DNA of 55,266 bases from Candidatus Poribacteria bacterium (GTDB taxonomy: Bacteria > Poribacteria > WGA-4E > WGA-3G): assembly GCA_022822275.1 (NCBI GenBank), contig JAJEBZ010000029.1, forward strand, positions 1 to 55,266. The letters are read 5' to 3'. The translations under genes and the position numbers were made by a program. Shown one piece after another: positions 17,409 to 42,734 of this stretch (position 1 is the first letter of the stretch; each line of letters starts with the position of its first letter). The notes under the pieces are model-generated. The model did no database searches and was not told the DNA's origin. It saw only the letters and a list, made by a program, of their open reading frames with translations.

Positions 17409-17446
17409 TTGTCTTGATGTTCTGTCCTATTCTGGAGATAACAGAT

Positions 17447-18052
17447 ATGGCTTATAGTGAGTTTACCTTAGAATCAGTAGTGCCCACATTTCAACTTCAG
17501 AAAATTGATACTACGGATCTCTTTTCAGCAGTTGCAACGGTTCCGCCAAGCGATCATCTGACGACCGCATTAGCAAAAAAAGCGGCTTTAGCTACTGCTA
17601 TCGGTACTGAGAAAGCACGGTCGGAACTGATTGTCGCTGATGTGCTTGTTGAACTCCGCGAACATTGTGAAAAGCGTATCAGTTTCTTTTCTGGTATTGA
17701 CTTCAATGTAGATGTAGAATCGGGTTTAACAGGTGTGTGTGACTTCTTAGTAAGCCTATCACCAAACCAATTTTATTTGGAAGCACCAGTAGTCATCCTT
17801 GTTGAGGCAAAAAACCTTGACTTGAAACTTGGACTTGGACAGTGTGTCGCAGAAATGCTCGCTGCCCAACGTTTTAATGCGGAAAGAGAAAATGACATCC
17901 CTTGCATTTATGGAGCAAGTACAACTGGAGTTGAGTGGTTATTCCTCAAGTTGGAAGGGAAGTGCTTGCAACTTGACATGTCAACCTATACGATTGAACG
18001 GTGTGACAGAATCCTCGGTATCCTCTCCAGTATGGTGGCACAAAAGGCGTGA
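17447..18052 (+). CDS. PD-(D/E)XK nuclease-like protein, copy 1
   Basis: A 201-residue soluble protein. Its core (residues about 85-130) has the layout of the PD-(D/E)XK fold: Asp in GVCDFLVS, then VVILVEAK with the E-x-K pair, then a helix starting GQCVAEMLAAQRF whose Gln is typical of the fold. Families of this type occur widely in cyanobacteria and are uncharacterised. The start chosen matches that of its neighbour. The gene lies 38 bases after dnaK and 30 bases before a paralogue of identical length. Nuclease activity is inferred from motif spacing only. It might be an inactive or regulatory relative. Confidence 0.65.
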   Translation: MAYSEFTLESVVPTFQLQKIDTTDLFSAVATVPPSDHLTTALAKKAALATAIGTEKARSELIVADVLVELREHCEKRISFFSGIDFNVDVESGLTGVCDFLVSLSPNQFYLEAPVVILVEAKNLDLKLGLGQCVAEMLAAQRFNAERENDIPCIYGASTTGVEWLFLKLEGKCLQLDMSTYTIERCDRILGILSSMVAQKA

Positions 18053-18082
18053 GGGGAGATAGAGGAATCAGGAGGAACAGAT

Positions 18083-18688
18083 ATGGCTTATAGTAATTTT
18101 ACCCTGGAGACAGTGGTAACAGCATTTCAGTTGGAAATTGTTGAATCCGCGGAGCTCTTTGCTGAAATAGAAGCAACAGTTCCAAGCCCTTATCTCACAG
18201 AGGTCCTGACCAAAAAGGTACAATTAGCCATCGCCATAGGGACAGAGAAGGCGAAGTCTGAGTTGATTGTTTCTGATGTTCTGTTTGAACTTCGCGAGCA
18301 ATTCCAGCACCGTATCAGTTTTTTTTCGGGCATTGAGTTCAGTGTTGACGAGGAAAGTGGATTAACCGGGGTATGCGATTTTTTAGTGAGCCTATCACCA
18401 GTGCAGCATCTGTTACAGGCTCCTATTATTGTTCTTGTTGAAGCGAAGAAGGATGATCTGAAACTTGGTATGGGGCAGTGTGTTGCTGAGATGCTCGCCG
18501 CTCAACGTTTTAATGCTGAGAGAGGAAATGACATTACTTCCGTTTATGGTGCCAGCACCACAGGCGTAGATTGGTTGTTCCTCAAACTTGAAGGAAAATG
18601 CCTGCACATTGATATGTCAACCTATACGATTGAACGGTGTGACAGAATCCTCGGTATCCTCTCCAGTATGGTGGCACAGAAAGCGTGA
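18083..18688 (+). CDS. PD-(D/E)XK nuclease-like protein, copy 2
   Basis: A 201-residue paralogue of the gene immediately upstream, colinear without gaps and similar along its whole length. It has the same motifs: GVCDFLVS, IVLVEAKKDDLKLG and GQCVAEMLAAQRFNAE. The AGGAGGA ribosome site is much better than that of copy 1. The final 60 or so bases are nearly identical to copy 1 even though the rest has drifted, which suggests local gene conversion. The duplication may give a heterodimer or simple dosage. Function unknown. Confidence 0.65.
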   Translation: MAYSNFTLETVVTAFQLEIVESAELFAEIEATVPSPYLTEVLTKKVQLAIAIGTEKAKSELIVSDVLFELREQFQHRISFFSGIEFSVDEESGLTGVCDFLVSLSPVQHLLQAPIIVLVEAKKDDLKLGMGQCVAEMLAAQRFNAERGNDITSVYGASTTGVDWLFLKLEGKCLHIDMSTYTIERCDRILGILSSMVAQKA

Positions 18689-21561: not shown

Positions 21562-22659
21562 TTATTGTTTGATAACAAAGATCACATCTGCTTCAGTTGA
21601 GTATGTTTCTCCATCCCAATCAAAGTCAATTTGAAAACCAACATCTGTATTTACTTTTTCTATATAATTTGCCACGTGTGTTGAAATCAAAGATCTAGCT
21701 CTTTTTAATTTCCATGAATCAAAAAAGTTCGTTTTATCTACCAACACCAGAAACAAGCGATTTGAAGCATCAAAACGTCGCACGCCTTGATTCTCATAAA
21801 ACCATCGTGCTAAAGGTTCAGGATTAGCAATAGATTCGTTTAACAATGTCTCTCTGCATGCGTATAATTCACGTACCAATCTGTGTGCATCATCATTTGG
21901 ATGATCGTCAAGTTTACGCCATAAATCAGGAATTAGGACTGATTCAGGAACGGACGTGTCAAAACTAATATCTAATTTTCGCGCTAAGTCTTTCATTAAG
22001 GTCAATTCAGGACGTAATCCGCTTGCCTTTCTATAATCTTTAATGTAGCCTTCAGGTAAGTATGTGACTTTCAAGTCAAACGGTTTATTGTTAAGAAAAA
22101 AGTCAATTTTCTTTATCTGTCCCACTGCTGGAATTACGTTCACATGCTCCTTAAAAATATCTTCAATAACGATGGAAGTCCAATGGTTGTACCATGAAGC
22201 TAATACATAAGCACGTAAACTATTGTGAAGATCCCCTTCTATTGCATCAGACAATGATTCATAAGAAGTTATCTTTTTCACATACCTGTTTACAATAGTT
22301 GCTTCTAAACTGTTTTGATGCAAACCGCCCCATTCAAAAGATTGAACTTTGTACAACTCACTTATCAATTGTTGTTCGTTTTCACGTCGGGTTTTTCGAT
22401 CTTTTTCAAATAATTCTTTTATAACGTCATCAATATTTACCGAACGTAGTTCTGACTCATAGAGTAATCTCAACTTCTCGTTGTTTGTCTTGCTATTCCC
22501 TATATCTACTTCAAATTTGTTGATAAGATAATCGAGATGTTCTTTGCGTGAAAGTGAACGGAGTTTCAAAAACCGCATTCCTTCATCTGTTGCGGAGAGT
22601 TCACGAATTTTATCGTCCTTGAACAGGCTCACAGCAGTACTAAAATCCAACATCTTCAA
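21562..22659 (-). CDS. restriction endonuclease-like protein of an R-M pair
   Basis: A 365-residue protein with no close family that I recognise. Positions 180-200 (VGQIKKIDFFL..KPFDLKVTYL) give a PD-(D/E)XK-like site: Asp186, then Asp195-x-Lys197. Its start overlaps the stop of the DNA methyltransferase gene by 4 bases, the classic tight coupling of a type II restriction-modification pair. The base composition is AT-richer than the flanking TCA genes, which suggests horizontal acquisition. Recognition sequence unknown. Ends 33 bases before mdh. Confidence 0.7.
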   Translation of the reverse strand: MKMLDFSTAVSLFKDDKIRELSATDEGMRFLKLRSLSRKEHLDYLINKFEVDIGNSKTNNEKLRLLYESELRSVNIDDVIKELFEKDRKTRRENEQQLISELYKVQSFEWGGLHQNSLEATIVNRYVKKITSYESLSDAIEGDLHNSLRAYVLASWYNHWTSIVIEDIFKEHVNVIPAVGQIKKIDFFLNNKPFDLKVTYLPEGYIKDYRKASGLRPELTLMKDLARKLDISFDTSVPESVLIPDLWRKLDDHPNDDAHRLVRELYACRETLLNESIANPEPLARWFYENQGVRRFDASNRLFLVLVDKTNFFDSWKLKRARSLISTHVANYIEKVNTDVGFQIDFDWDGETYSTEADVIFVIKQ

Positions 22660-24155
22660 TTACTTTCTTTAGGATAACGAGTTGTCCAGTTTTTTATATT
22701 TCTAAATGTCTCTACGGTTTTTTCTCGATTTTTCTCGTTAATTTGCTTTCCGAACAACAGAACATAATCAGTTTTTAATCCACCTTTTCTATTATCTTGT
22801 AGTACGGATCCTGCCGAATATGGGCTCGGATAACATCCAATAAATGTAAGTCCTATAGATGCTTCAAGTTCACGAAAACTTTGCCAATGACATTCAGATC
22901 TCGCGTTAAATAGGATTGCCATAATCCCGTTCTTTTTTAGGACACGAGCACATTGACTAAATATAGAAGATAACTTTTCGTTATATGATTGGATATCTTT
23001 TCCTCTCTCTTTTGCATTCGAAACAACAAGTTCATCTTCATAATCATAATCAAGTCCTAAAATACTGTTCCACATCTCACTAAGTTCTAAGTACGGAATC
23101 CGATCTCCGTGCGGAGGGTCGGTTAAGATGACTTTGATTGATTCTGCTGGAATATCCTTTAGAAGTTGTTCTGCATCTCCCTGTTGAACACAAACAGTTT
23201 CTTTCTCATTGAAAAAGTCATTTGGATTAGATGAAATCGGAGTTTTTTTAGAAGTCCTTGCTTCCGCAACAGCCTTTAGCAATTTGCTGGCTTTTGTAGC
23301 ATAGCAATTCCAGGCGTTGATCTCAAAATGTTGTGTTGGGCACCAATATCCAACTATCCAACTCCCCACCTCAATTTTATCCGTTTCAATACCCTTGGTT
23401 TTCCCTCTTTTTGAGACAGCAAAAACCATGTTGGACATTTGACCTACTGATGCAGACAGTATCAGAAGCAACGCTCTTTTTAAGTTGTCAGAATACTGTT
23501 CAATTTCACTCTTGATTAGGTCAATTGCTCGTAATGCGCGTGGTGAAAATAAAGTATCAATGGTAAGGTTTTTTTGTGAATTTATCCTTGTATTGTCAAA
23601 CAACTGAAGTTTCCTTAACCTTTTTGGTTGGTATTCTTCGGCACTTTGGAAACCCTTCAGTTCTAATTCTGTTGGGTTAAGTTCAACTTTTCTACTTCCA
23701 CGTTTTGTCCAAACTCTTGTAATCTGGTCATTGTTCCATAGAAAATGGGTAACTATATTTCCATCTGACAATTGATACATAGAATTGATACGTGGTTTTA
23801 GGTGCTTTTCAAAAGCAAAAATAGCATTTCCTAAATCAATATAGTCTGGGGGACGTAGGTAAAGTTTTGCTAACTCAATACTAATTGGGTTGATGTCAAA
23901 ACCGATAAATCGGCAATTTTGACCTACACATTCTTTTGCTATGAGCCCTGAACCGAGGAAAGGATCTAAAACAATATCATGAGGTTCAGCCAGATTTTCT
24001 ATTAGAAACCGCCACACTTCAACTGGTTTTTTCCCCCAATATTTGTGGAAACCAGCGAACCCTTTATAGCCTTCAGGTGGTAATGGGCTACCTAAAGCAC
24101 TATAGCCGTCAAGATTGAATGACATTTGTAGGTTATCGGACATTTGTGAATCCAT
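22656..24155 (-). CDS. site-specific DNA methyltransferase
   Basis: A 499-residue amino-methyltransferase (N6-adenine or N4-cytosine). The AdoMet-binding motif DPFLGSG is at residues 64-70, followed by GFDINP. The catalytic DPPHGD motif is at 346-351 in place of the usual DPPY. HKYWGKKP at 37-44 resembles the HKYWxRKP signature of DUF1156-like and related methylases. The two motifs are far apart, with a large insertion that probably includes target recognition. It is coupled by a 4-base overlap to the downstream endonuclease gene. The ribosome site is poor, and the true start could be an inner Met. Confidence 0.88.
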   Translation of the reverse strand: MDSQMSDNLQMSFNLDGYSALGSPLPPEGYKGFAGFHKYWGKKPVEVWRFLIENLAEPHDIVLDPFLGSGLIAKECVGQNCRFIGFDINPISIELAKLYLRPPDYIDLGNAIFAFEKHLKPRINSMYQLSDGNIVTHFLWNNDQITRVWTKRGSRKVELNPTELELKGFQSAEEYQPKRLRKLQLFDNTRINSQKNLTIDTLFSPRALRAIDLIKSEIEQYSDNLKRALLLILSASVGQMSNMVFAVSKRGKTKGIETDKIEVGSWIVGYWCPTQHFEINAWNCYATKASKLLKAVAEARTSKKTPISSNPNDFFNEKETVCVQQGDAEQLLKDIPAESIKVILTDPPHGDRIPYLELSEMWNSILGLDYDYEDELVVSNAKERGKDIQSYNEKLSSIFSQCARVLKKNGIMAILFNARSECHWQSFRELEASIGLTFIGCYPSPYSAGSVLQDNRKGGLKTDYVLLFGKQINEKNREKTVETFRNIKNWTTRYPKESN

Positions 24156-40581: not shown

Positions 40582-41121
40582 TCAAATAGATAACAAATAT
40601 CTATTCGCTGTTAGGATCTGAATCTCTTGAGTTTTAAAGTCTCTATCATCTGTTATTAGTGTGAATCCGTTGTTTTTGCATAGTTCAGTAATTACTTGAT
40701 CATTATAGTCAGAATCGCCTTTGGCATAATCATCAAGTAGGTCATCTATTTTTAACGTTTTAAAGCCGCTTTCTATTTGTAGACAATGTTGCATAACCCG
40801 CTTAGCATCTGCAGTAATATCTTTCGCAACTGGTTTGAAATGATGGCTATTACGAAAATTCTTGAAATATTTGAAACGCGGTGCAACAAGTTTCCATTTT
40901 CTTCTTGCGTAGGTATTAATAAATTCAGAAACGACTAAGACATCAATATATATTTGGCTTTTTGCGTTCTTAATACGTTTAAAGACATTGGAATAGATTC
41001 TCTCCCAATAATACCTCGGCTTTTGCGGCCCATATAGGTATAACCAGATATTGGCATCCAAGAATAATTGATCTTTCTTAGAAAAATTGTAGTTACGTAC
41101 ATCTATTACTTTATGCTTCAT
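40582..41121 (-). CDS. PIN-domain nuclease-like protein
   Basis: A 179-residue PIN-fold protein. The acidic site is complete: Asp22 in LFLDANIWLYL, Glu66 in VVSEFIN, Asp138/Asp141 in GDSDYNDQVI and Asp158/Asp161 in TDDRDF. These coordinate metal for RNA cleavage in VapC-type toxins and rRNA-processing PIN proteins. It is longer than typical VapC (about 130). Its start overlaps the STAS-like gene by 11 bases, so the two are translationally linked, and no VapB-type antitoxin is present. This suggests the STAS-like/GHKL partners, rather than a DNA-binding antitoxin, control it. Confidence 0.82.
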   Translation of the reverse strand: MKHKVIDVRNYNFSKKDQLFLDANIWLYLYGPQKPRYYWERIYSNVFKRIKNAKSQIYIDVLVVSEFINTYARRKWKLVAPRFKYFKNFRNSHHFKPVAKDITADAKRVMQHCLQIESGFKTLKIDDLLDDYAKGDSDYNDQVITELCKNNGFTLITDDRDFKTQEIQILTANRYLLSI

Positions 41122-41467
41122 TGTTTAATGTTTCTTGAATTGCTCTGTTGAATTTCTCGGGATTCTTGAAGTATAGTTTGGCATTGTCAACAACACGCTT
41201 CAGTAAAGCAAGATCGTCTTGTTCAGCGTCTTCAATTTTTAACAAAGAACGAATTTGATCCGTATCAAATATTCCATACAATTGACCGATCGCTGCATTC
41301 AGAAAAGCTGAAGTTAATGTCGTGACATTATGGAATGAGAGTACAACATTTAGATCCATTTCAAGAGCTGTCTTAAGGCGTTCATAAACCTTTTGACCAT
41401 CGCTGGAAGCGACGCATAATGGACTACCTACTACCTCAAACATATATATTTTAATTTCTTCTGGCAT
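41111..41467 (-). CDS. STAS-like domain protein (DUF4325 type)
   Basis: A 118-residue protein resembling the DUF4325 STAS-like family, with the diagnostic NVVLSFHNVTTLTSAFLNAA followed by IGQLYG. STAS domains bind GHKL kinases in partner-switching systems (SpoIIAA/SpoIIAB style). The ATG at 41467 is chosen because GGGAGA precedes it; an upstream start would overlap the GHKL gene. It lies 10 bases after the GHKL-STAS gene and overlaps the PIN gene. A regulated conserved Ser/Thr cannot be assigned, though the TTLTS stretch is a candidate. Confidence 0.8.
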   Translation of the reverse strand: MPEEIKIYMFEVVGSPLCVASSDGQKVYERLKTALEMDLNVVLSFHNVTTLTSAFLNAAIGQLYGIFDTDQIRSLLKIEDAEQDDLALLKRVVDNAKLYFKNPEKFNRAIQETLNNEA

Positions 41468-41477
41468 GGTTTTCTCC

Positions 41478-42350
41478 CTAAAAGATGTCTTCTGCATCTA
41501 TTTCGTGTGTAAGTGTGTAAGTGTTCGTGTCTGATGTTTTGATTTCTATACTTACTACTGTACCGGGAAATGGACAACTCAGTCGTTCGGTTTTAGTTGT
41601 ACGATTTTTCCGCTGCCAATAACCCGCATCTGATACAATTTGAATACAACCACCATTCAAGTCTATAAAGTCAATGAGTAACTTCAACCCTAACCCACCA
41701 GGCAAGTTACCTTCCTTAGTTGTGTGTCCTTCCTCTGTTGCCCAAATAATTGCCTCTTCTGGTGTATATTTTTCACCCGTGCAGTCTTTTATATTTTTTT
41801 GGATGCCAACTCCAAGGTCCGCTACCGTAAAATCAAGTTGATCTTTTTTTGGGAAAAACTGCCCACAACTAAATATTCCTAAATCAGTGCGTGAATGTAA
41901 GACAGCATTGCTGAATATCTCAAAAATGCTTTCTCTAAATTTCTTTAACAATTCGCGTGACATATCAGGTATTTCATCACGATGCAACAATTCATCTTCA
42001 ATATAATTCGCAAAAAAGTGATCGTCTTCAACGTCAAACCTTTGATAAGGAATAGTAGTTCCCCAACGATCCGGAATTGTTAGACGGCCATAGTGACTGA
42101 GAAAACCGTTTTTTGATAGAATTGTCTCAACTTCTTGGGGAATATGAATTATATTTACTTTATTTAATCTGTCACCCAAACTATAGAGGATAGCACCAAA
42201 TGCAGCACACATATCCGCATCAAACCAATATGTTTCTCTTAGATCAATCTCAACTTTATTAAAGTTTAATTCTTTTGTTTCTGCATATAGACGTGCCAAG
42301 GCATCAAAACTAGTATGGTCATGGTGAATCTTTGGTAGAAAGAATCTCAC
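41478..42350 (-). CDS. GHKL ATPase with N-terminal STAS-like region
   Basis: A 290-residue protein. The N-terminal 100 residues (VEIDLRETYWFDADMCAAFG..) look STAS-like. The C-terminal half is a HATPase/GHKL domain with N box Asn148 in IFEIFSNAVLHS, G1 box DLGVGI (178-183) and G2 box PGGLGLKLL (217-225). No phospho-acceptor His domain or receiver is present, so it resembles anti-sigma-factor kinases more than histidine kinases. It starts with GTG after TGAGGT. First gene of the GHKL/STAS-like/PIN unit. Confidence 0.82.
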   Translation of the reverse strand: MRFFLPKIHHDHTSFDALARLYAETKELNFNKVEIDLRETYWFDADMCAAFGAILYSLGDRLNKVNIIHIPQEVETILSKNGFLSHYGRLTIPDRWGTTIPYQRFDVEDDHFFANYIEDELLHRDEIPDMSRELLKKFRESIFEIFSNAVLHSRTDLGIFSCGQFFPKKDQLDFTVADLGVGIQKNIKDCTGEKYTPEEAIIWATEEGHTTKEGNLPGGLGLKLLIDFIDLNGGCIQIVSDAGYWQRKNRTTKTERLSCPFPGTVVSIEIKTSDTNTYTLTHEIDAEDIF

Positions 42351-42734
42351 ACTGATACCTCACGTAAGGTTTTGTTTAGACGTTAACTCAAATGAAACAG
42401 TTTAAATCAAGCTTGCTCTATTCTACTAATACATAGAATGTTTTAAAAGACATAATATGTGTCAACCAATACATAACAACATAGATTTTCAATTATAACA
42501 TGTAAACATTTTGAATTCAAGAAAATGTATAAAACATTGTAAATATTCTGGAGTTGTTTAATAAGCAGAAAACCCATCAAAGATTCGTTGAAATATGTTA
42601 GGACTGGTATTTAAAAAACTTTCTCCACAACATTAACAAAGTCATAGATAGTACTTGGATTTCCTATTATACCATAGTCTTATGTTGAATGCACCAAAAT
42701 TTCGTCATTACACTATCGCAGCATAAACACAACC
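42351..42734. other. AT-rich gene-free interval
   Basis: Separates the GHKL gene from the 3' end of lpd on the same strand. Very AT-rich. It should hold the GHKL-unit promoter, but no clear -35/-10 pair or repeat is seen. Confidence 0.4.

What the first reader, a model, noticed from the sequence alone, without database searches (positions are those of the whole stretch)
40582..42350. GHKL ATPase, STAS-like protein and PIN nuclease in one unit: candidate partner-switch-controlled RNase
Three genes overlap or nearly touch (10-base gap, 11-base overlap), implying coupled translation. The sequence shows intact GHKL N/G1/G2 boxes, a DUF4325-type STAS-like domain and all PIN acidic residues, but no DNA-binding antitoxin. 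In SpoIIAA/SpoIIAB systems a GHKL kinase and a STAS protein switch partners according to ATP or phosphorylation. I infer that such a switch here could hold or release a PIN RNase, giving a stress or phage response module. I do not know a named system with this composition.
Basis: partly seen in the sequence, partly recalled or inferred. Interest (0 to 1): 0.75.

Follow-up and report, generated by a model that had tools for sequence, protein, structure and literature searches.

The report
Kinase-released RNase toxin module (VapKSC)
Three touching genes encode a kinase, a small inhibitor and an RNA-cutting toxin that match VapKSC, a phage-defence switch described in 2026; it is a new member from a poorly known bacterial phylum, and its relatives show that where the kinase gene is lost, the inhibitor's phosphorylation site is often lost too.

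Summary
In detail: 42350-40582 (minus strand) carries GHKL, DUF4325/STAS and PIN genes with a 10-bp gap and an 11-bp overlap. VapKSC was reported in June 2026 (PMC13373217). In the PDB, the only sequence hit of the window's STAS protein is Escherichia VapS (9z7o_A, 1e-14). The only hit of the PIN is Escherichia VapC (9z7o_C, 0.0024; profile 3e-15). All catalytic residues and the phospho-acceptor Ser are present, and the GHKL protein has an N-terminal STAS domain, as VapK does. The same gene order occurs on a Deinococcus plasmid and in many prophages; all 15 uncut prophage loci found through VapK have all three genes. Beyond the paper, in the same phylum: (i) 13 genomes with no detectable VapK keep VapS+VapC under purifying selection; (ii) orphan VapS genes persist; (iii) the phospho-acceptor is Ser/Thr in every VapK+ locus but Ala/Gly in 15 of 32 VapK-less loci, and a neighbouring Asn behaves alike. 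Phylogenetic independence is limited (at least 5 changes). Verdict: new member of a known kind, with an informative evolutionary by-product.

The parts
41478..42350 (-). vapK: STAS (aa 1-~90) + GHKL kinase domain (aa ~99-271), 290 aa, GTG start
   Evidence: HATPase_c 8e-4; AlphaFold2 pLDDT 90.7, GHKL part closest to SpoIIAB, TM(target) 0.56-0.64; N-terminal part matches RsbS and TM1442 STAS by profile
41111..41467 (-). vapS: DUF4325/STAS antitoxin, 118 aa (128 aa from the upstream ATG at 41497)
   Evidence: PF14213 2e-13; Escherichia VapS 9z7o_A E=1e-14, sole PDB hit; AlphaFold2 pLDDT 88.6 with C-terminal helices 83-101 and 103-115
40582..41121 (-). vapC: PIN-domain nuclease toxin, 179 aa
   Evidence: PF01850 9e-11; Escherichia VapC 9z7o_C 0.0024 single sequence, 3e-15 by profile; D22, E66, D138, D141, D159, D161 conserved
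41309..41311 (-). phospho-acceptor Ser codon of VapS (S53 of the 118-aa form, S63 of the 128-aa ORF), equivalent to Escherichia S48
   Evidence: alignment with 9z7o_A; Ser/Thr in 35/35 VapK+ loci, lost in 15/32 VapK-less loci
42225..42227 (-). Trp42 codon of VapK, candidate equivalent of the ssDNA-sensing aromatic (Escherichia VapK F54 / CapK W68)
   Evidence: W/F/Y in 34/34 VapK homologues; equivalence inferred, Escherichia VapK sequence not available here
41056..41058 (-). Asp22 codon of VapC, equivalent to Escherichia VapC catalytic D28
   Evidence: alignment to 9z7o_C
42351..42734 (-). 384-bp AT-rich (29% GC) gap to lpd, presumed promoter region; TTGAAT-17-TATAAT at 42520-42492 is one weak candidate
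   Evidence: promoter-like matches are not significantly above shuffles (14 against 10.1, sd 2.7)

Best explanation
The three genes are a vapKSC operon. At rest the VapS antitoxin binds the VapC PIN RNase and its C-terminal helix blocks the active site. When VapK senses damage (probably single-stranded DNA bound between its STAS and GHKL domains), it phosphorylates one Ser in VapS. Phospho-VapS lets go of VapC, which then cuts RNA (probably rRNA or tRNA) and arrests the cell, limiting phage growth. Shown here: genes, order, homology to Escherichia VapS and VapC, catalytic and phospho-acceptor residues, the VapK domain layout, and co-variation of the phospho-acceptor with presence of the kinase. 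Shown by others in an Escherichia homologue: VapC toxicity, VapS neutralisation, loss of neutralisation and of binding with S48E, loss of phage protection with D28A, S48A or F54A. Inferred for this locus: activity, ssDNA as the trigger, and RNA as the target.
For: The only PDB sequence hits of VapS and VapC are chains A and C of one VapS-VapC complex, 9z7o. The paper describes the same three-gene order and domain content. The trio is conserved on D. gobiensis plasmid P5, a gut phage contig, Streptococcus phage Javan172 and at least 18 IMG/VR prophage contigs. Catalytic residues of VapK and VapC are invariant or nearly so. Phospho-acceptor S/T in 35/35 VapK+ loci against 17/32 VapK-less; N67 35/35 against 9/32; five other near-invariant columns (F55, F65, A69, G71, L73) kept in 30-32 of 32. 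dN/dS 0.15-0.17 for all three genes in VapK+ loci. Many relatives lie beside restriction-modification or PD-T4-4-like genes.
Against: No functional assay in this organism. VapC identity to Escherichia VapC is low. The HATPase_c match is below Pfam's cut-off. The ssDNA-aromatic equivalence (W42) could not be aligned directly to Escherichia VapK. Activation by ssDNA was not shown biochemically even for Escherichia VapK. In this phylum VapS and VapC persist in 13 genomes without VapK, so the kinase is not always required for retention of the pair.
Confidence: 0.9

Rival explanations
1. VapS-VapC is in essence a stand-alone two-gene toxin-antitoxin pair, and the GHKL gene is an optional regulator whose loss hardly matters.
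For: 13 genomes keep intact VapS+VapC with no VapK match anywhere in the assembly; both genes are under purifying selection there (omega 0.14 and 0.21); the VapK-less rows group together on the VapS tree.
Against: The window has an intact VapK. Outside this phylum all 15 uncut loci found through VapK have all three genes. VapK itself is under purifying selection (omega 0.15) and the phospho-acceptor is never lost while VapK is present.
Confidence: 0.06
2. A CapK-CapS-like transcriptional switch that controls a neighbouring operon.
For: Same kinase and STAS fold class; the paper links the two systems.
Against: VapK here has no N-terminal HTH and VapS has no wHTH (118 aa, STAS plus short helical tail); no downstream immune operon in the window; the PDB hit is VapS, with CapS (9z72) only at E=0.55.
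Confidence: 0.02
3. A general-stress anti-sigma-type partner switch (SpoIIAB/RsbW class) whose real target is a sigma factor or unknown protein; the PIN gene is a passenger.
For: The GHKL domain model is closest to SpoIIAB; the VapK N-terminal domain resembles RsbS.
Against: No sigma factor nearby; the PIN gene is linked in every VapK-anchored uncut prophage locus and is homologous to the VapC that Escherichia VapS binds in the crystal.
Confidence: 0.02

Closest known systems
VapKSC (Escherichia sp. E4736; Chambers et al. 2026, PMC13373217; VapS-VapC structure PDB 9z7o)
   Same: Gene order K-S-C, STAS+GHKL kinase without HTH, STAS antitoxin with Ser/Thr acceptor and helical C-terminus, PIN toxin with conserved acidic residues
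   Different: Distant in sequence; host is a Latescibacterota/Poribacteria-like MAG; the window locus sits between housekeeping genes; relatives in this phylum include VapK-less VapSC and orphan VapS, not described in the main text of the paper
CapK-CapS (same paper)
   Same: GHKL kinase with a STAS domain, phosphorylating a STAS partner
   Different: CapK has an extra HTH, CapS a wHTH; they control transcription of a neighbouring immune operon and do not hold a toxin
VapBC type II toxin-antitoxin
   Same: PIN-domain toxin of the VapC kind
   Different: Antitoxin is STAS, not a DNA-binding VapB; a kinase gene is added; per the paper, VapS does not displace the active-site Mg2+
SpoIIAB-SpoIIAA / RsbW-RsbV partner switches
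   Same: GHKL kinase phosphorylates a Ser at the start of the second STAS helix
   Different: Output is a sigma factor; no nuclease; kinase lacks the N-terminal STAS domain

Membership tests
VapKSC | Three-gene operon in the order kinase, STAS, PIN | tested here: met
   same order in L148, L149, L150 and prophages
VapKSC | VapK = STAS + GHKL, no HTH | tested here: met
   AlphaFold2 model pLDDT 90.7; STAS profile hits TM1442 3.5e-6 and RsbS 8e-4; SpoIIAB fold match; 290 aa leave no room for an HTH
VapKSC | Intact GHKL nucleotide-binding boxes | tested here: met
   E144, N148, H152, G180, G219, G221 invariant in 34/34
VapKSC | Aromatic ssDNA-sensing residue in VapK (F54 in Escherichia) | tested here: inconclusive
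   W42 is W/F/Y in 34/34 homologues, but Escherichia VapK could not be fetched for direct alignment
VapKSC | VapS homologous to Escherichia VapS with the Ser/Thr acceptor | tested here: met
   9z7o_A E=1e-14; S63/S53 aligned with the Escherichia Ser
VapKSC | VapS C-terminal helix reaching the VapC active site | tested here: inconclusive
   C-terminal helices predicted at aa 83-101 and 103-115, the last at low confidence, so the helix is present; its contact with VapC was not tested
VapKSC | VapC homologous to Escherichia VapC with catalytic acids | tested here: met
VapKSC | VapC toxic, neutralised by VapS, released by VapK phosphorylation; phage protection | not testable with these tools
   wet-lab only; shown for the Escherichia homologue except direct VapK kinase activity
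CapK-CapS | HTH on the kinase and wHTH on the STAS protein | tested here: not met
VapBC | DNA-binding VapB-type antitoxin gene upstream of the PIN gene | tested here: not met
   the upstream gene is DUF4325/STAS; no other ORF between
SpoIIAB/RsbW sigma switch | Sigma-factor gene in the operon | tested here: not met
Systems in PADLOC-DB 2.0.0 | Match of any of the three proteins to a defence model | tested here: not met
   only a weak DrmA match to the GHKL domain, 1e-3; the library predates VapKSC

The most novel reading that the evidence does not exclude
VapS has a life without its kinase. In this phylum (and in one 143-kb viral contig, L176, where a VapS domain is fused to an AAA+ ATPase and has Met at the acceptor site) non-phosphorylatable VapS proteins are kept by selection, acting as permanently locked antitoxins that protect against VapC of incoming vapKSC elements, or, when phage-borne, as counter-defence against VapKSC.
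Probability: 0.25. Interest if true: 0.65.

Novelty: new member of a known kind. Interest (0 to 1): 0.42.

Why it matters
It extends VapKSC to a Latescibacterota/Poribacteria-like phylum and confirms it as a mobile defence module carried by prophages, plasmids and restriction islands. The relatives give an independent, evolutionary line of evidence for the phospho-switch: the acceptor Ser/Thr and a neighbouring Asn are lost only where the kinase is absent. They also reveal VapK-less VapSC pairs and phospho-dead orphan VapS proteins that can be tested directly as locked antitoxins.

Tried and rejected
Single-protein scan of genome contigs gave only one relative, so the genome search over the phylum was used instead. 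Papers on DUF4325 say nothing about function. Viral scan with Escherichia VapS found nothing, and plasmid and phage scans with it only reached loci already in hand, so Escherichia VapK could not be obtained. Fold search of the VapS model gave no significant PDB match (library ends April 2026, best STAS TM about 0.5), so the sequence hit to 9z7o is the evidence for VapS. I first read the S/T conservation in all viral loci as unbiased, but the scan pattern itself required S/T at that place. I therefore checked loci retrieved through VapK instead: 15 of 15 are S/T with Asn at +4. Phylogenetically independent pairs are too few (1-3) for a sign test. Considered and rejected: dead cassette (low dN/dS), CapKS, VapBC.

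Full report
WHAT IS THERE. On the minus strand, 42350-41478 encodes a 290-aa GHKL protein, 41467-41111 a 118-aa DUF4325/STAS protein and 41121-40582 a 179-aa PIN protein. Upstream lies lpd after a 384-bp gap of 29% GC; downstream lies glyQS. The cassette is 36% GC in a window whose mean is 42.6% (sd 2.5; only 3 of 214 positions are lower), which fits a recent arrival. The assembly is one of 85 held genomes of its phylum; the single named relative found in genome contigs is a Candidatus Latescibacterota MAG.

WHAT IT IS. The only PDB sequence that matches the STAS protein is Escherichia VapS (9z7o_A, E=1e-14), and the only one that matches the PIN protein is Escherichia VapC of the same entry (9z7o_C, 0.0024; 3e-15 with a 14-sequence profile). 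The system is VapKSC (EMBO J 2026, PMC13373217). There a GHKL kinase with an N-terminal STAS domain (VapK) is thought to sense ssDNA and phosphorylate the STAS antitoxin (VapS) at Ser48. A Ser48Glu change abolishes VapC binding and neutralisation. The operon gives about 2 logs of protection against phage Bas42, which D28A (VapC), S48A (VapS) and F54A (VapK) each abolish. The authors report 289 instances, 36% of them within 10 kb of another defence gene. Direct ssDNA activation of VapK could not be tested by them.

RESIDUE-LEVEL TEST. VapC: D22, E66, D138, D141, D159, D161 conserved in 42-43 of 43 homologues, Escherichia included. VapK: N, G1 and G2 boxes intact; position 42 is W, F or Y in 34 of 34, the likely equivalent of the ssDNA aromatic (F54 in Escherichia, W68 in CapK), but this could not be aligned directly. 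VapS: the Ser aligned to Escherichia S48 is S63 of the 128-aa ORF or S53 of the 118-aa form. AlphaFold2 models: VapK pLDDT 90.7, with a STAS domain (about 1-90) followed by a GHKL domain closest to SpoIIAB (STAS profile hits); VapS pLDDT 88.6, with the Ser at the start of a helix and a helical C-terminus.

DISTRIBUTION. Complete trios in the same order: Deinococcus gobiensis plasmid P5 (L148), gut phage contig MT837343 (L149), Streptococcus phage Javan172 (L150, its PIN ORF unannotated), and many IMG/VR prophages, often beside integrase, repressor or lysis genes. Fifteen of fifteen uncut prophage loci retrieved through VapK carry VapS and VapC (in L161 VapC is split by a frameshift). In the window's own phylum VapK occurs in 15, VapC in 33 and VapS in 42 of 85 genomes. 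Loci fall into a few sites: beside lpd (window), beside an ABC-transporter/SDR cluster, inside a type III restriction island together with a PDC-M47/PD-T4-4-like pair, beside a type IIG/ISP restriction enzyme, and next to a CRISPR array (L002, by inspection). Restriction and defence annotation rests on one representative per cluster. By that count about 10 of 17 VapK-bearing loci of the phylum have such a gene within 9 kb; the window's own nearest is a methyltransferase about 17 kb away.

BEYOND THE PAPER. (a) Thirteen loci carry intact VapS+VapC without VapK, and their genomes have no VapK match at E<=1e-3. VapS and VapC there are under purifying selection (median dN/dS 0.14 and 0.21, against 0.17 and 0.17 in VapK+ loci). 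(b) Orphan VapS genes also remain constrained (pairs 0.05-0.30). (c) The acceptor column is S/T in 35 of 35 VapK+ rows and A/G in 15 of 32 VapK-less rows. N67 is Asn in 35 of 35 and 9 of 32. Five other near-invariant columns (F55, F65, A69, G71, L73) are kept in 30-32 of 32 VapK-less rows; V102 is kept in 25. So loss is concentrated on the acceptor motif.

LIMITS OF (c). Part of the viral sample was drawn with a pattern that required S/T, although the 15 VapK-anchored loci, the phylum loci and L148, L149 and L151 were not. On the VapS tree the acceptor changed at least 5 times and VapK status at least twice; VapK-less branches hold 52% of tree length, so five losses all falling there by chance has p of about 0.04 (0.52^5, a rough figure). 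The naive Fisher p (1.6e-6) ignores relatedness. dN/dS is NG86 at dS near 1, and pairwise values cannot be tied wholly to the time after the loss of VapK or VapC.

A PHAGE VARIANT. A 143-kb viral contig (L176) encodes an AAA+ ATPase fused to a VapS domain (46% identical to the window's) with Met at the acceptor, and no VapK or VapC in the 6.3 kb held. A phage-borne locked antitoxin is one possible reading; nothing tests it here.

JUDGEMENT. New member of a known kind, interest moderate. The acceptor-loss pattern and the VapK-less lineage are the parts that would interest a specialist.

Noticed in passing
window 21562-24155 (-): A 365-aa ORF overlapping a 499-aa DNA methyltransferase (PADLOC MTase_II 9e-38): probable type II restriction-modification pair.
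   Followed up: partly
window 17414-18688 (+): Tandem duplicated ~200-aa genes matching PADLOC PD_DExK 'Cas associated' (about 1e-46).
   Followed up: partly
L176:1720-3357: 142.7-kb viral contig encodes an AAA+ ATPase fused to a VapS domain with Met at the phospho-acceptor; no VapK or VapC nearby.
   Followed up: partly
L110, L113, L020-L022, L095 and others: Type III restriction island in this phylum with interchangeable inserts (VapKSC, VapSC, orphan VapS, OLD-like ATPase, PDC-M47/PD-T4-4 pair, HEPN protein), a modular defence hotspot.
   Followed up: partly
L002:3000-4600: CRISPR array with cas genes just upstream of VapK in a Latescibacterota MAG; VapC there is reduced to a C-terminal fragment.
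   Followed up: no
L167:1087-3632 and L151:3536-4734: Variant loci: GHKL-STAS pairs without a PIN gene; in L167 a 408-aa gene of unknown kind lies between them. Possible alternative effectors of the same switch.
   Followed up: no
L101, L104, L108, L109, L127: VapC reduced to N- or C-terminal remnants while VapS mostly remains open, as expected for toxin loss with antitoxin retention.
   Followed up: partly
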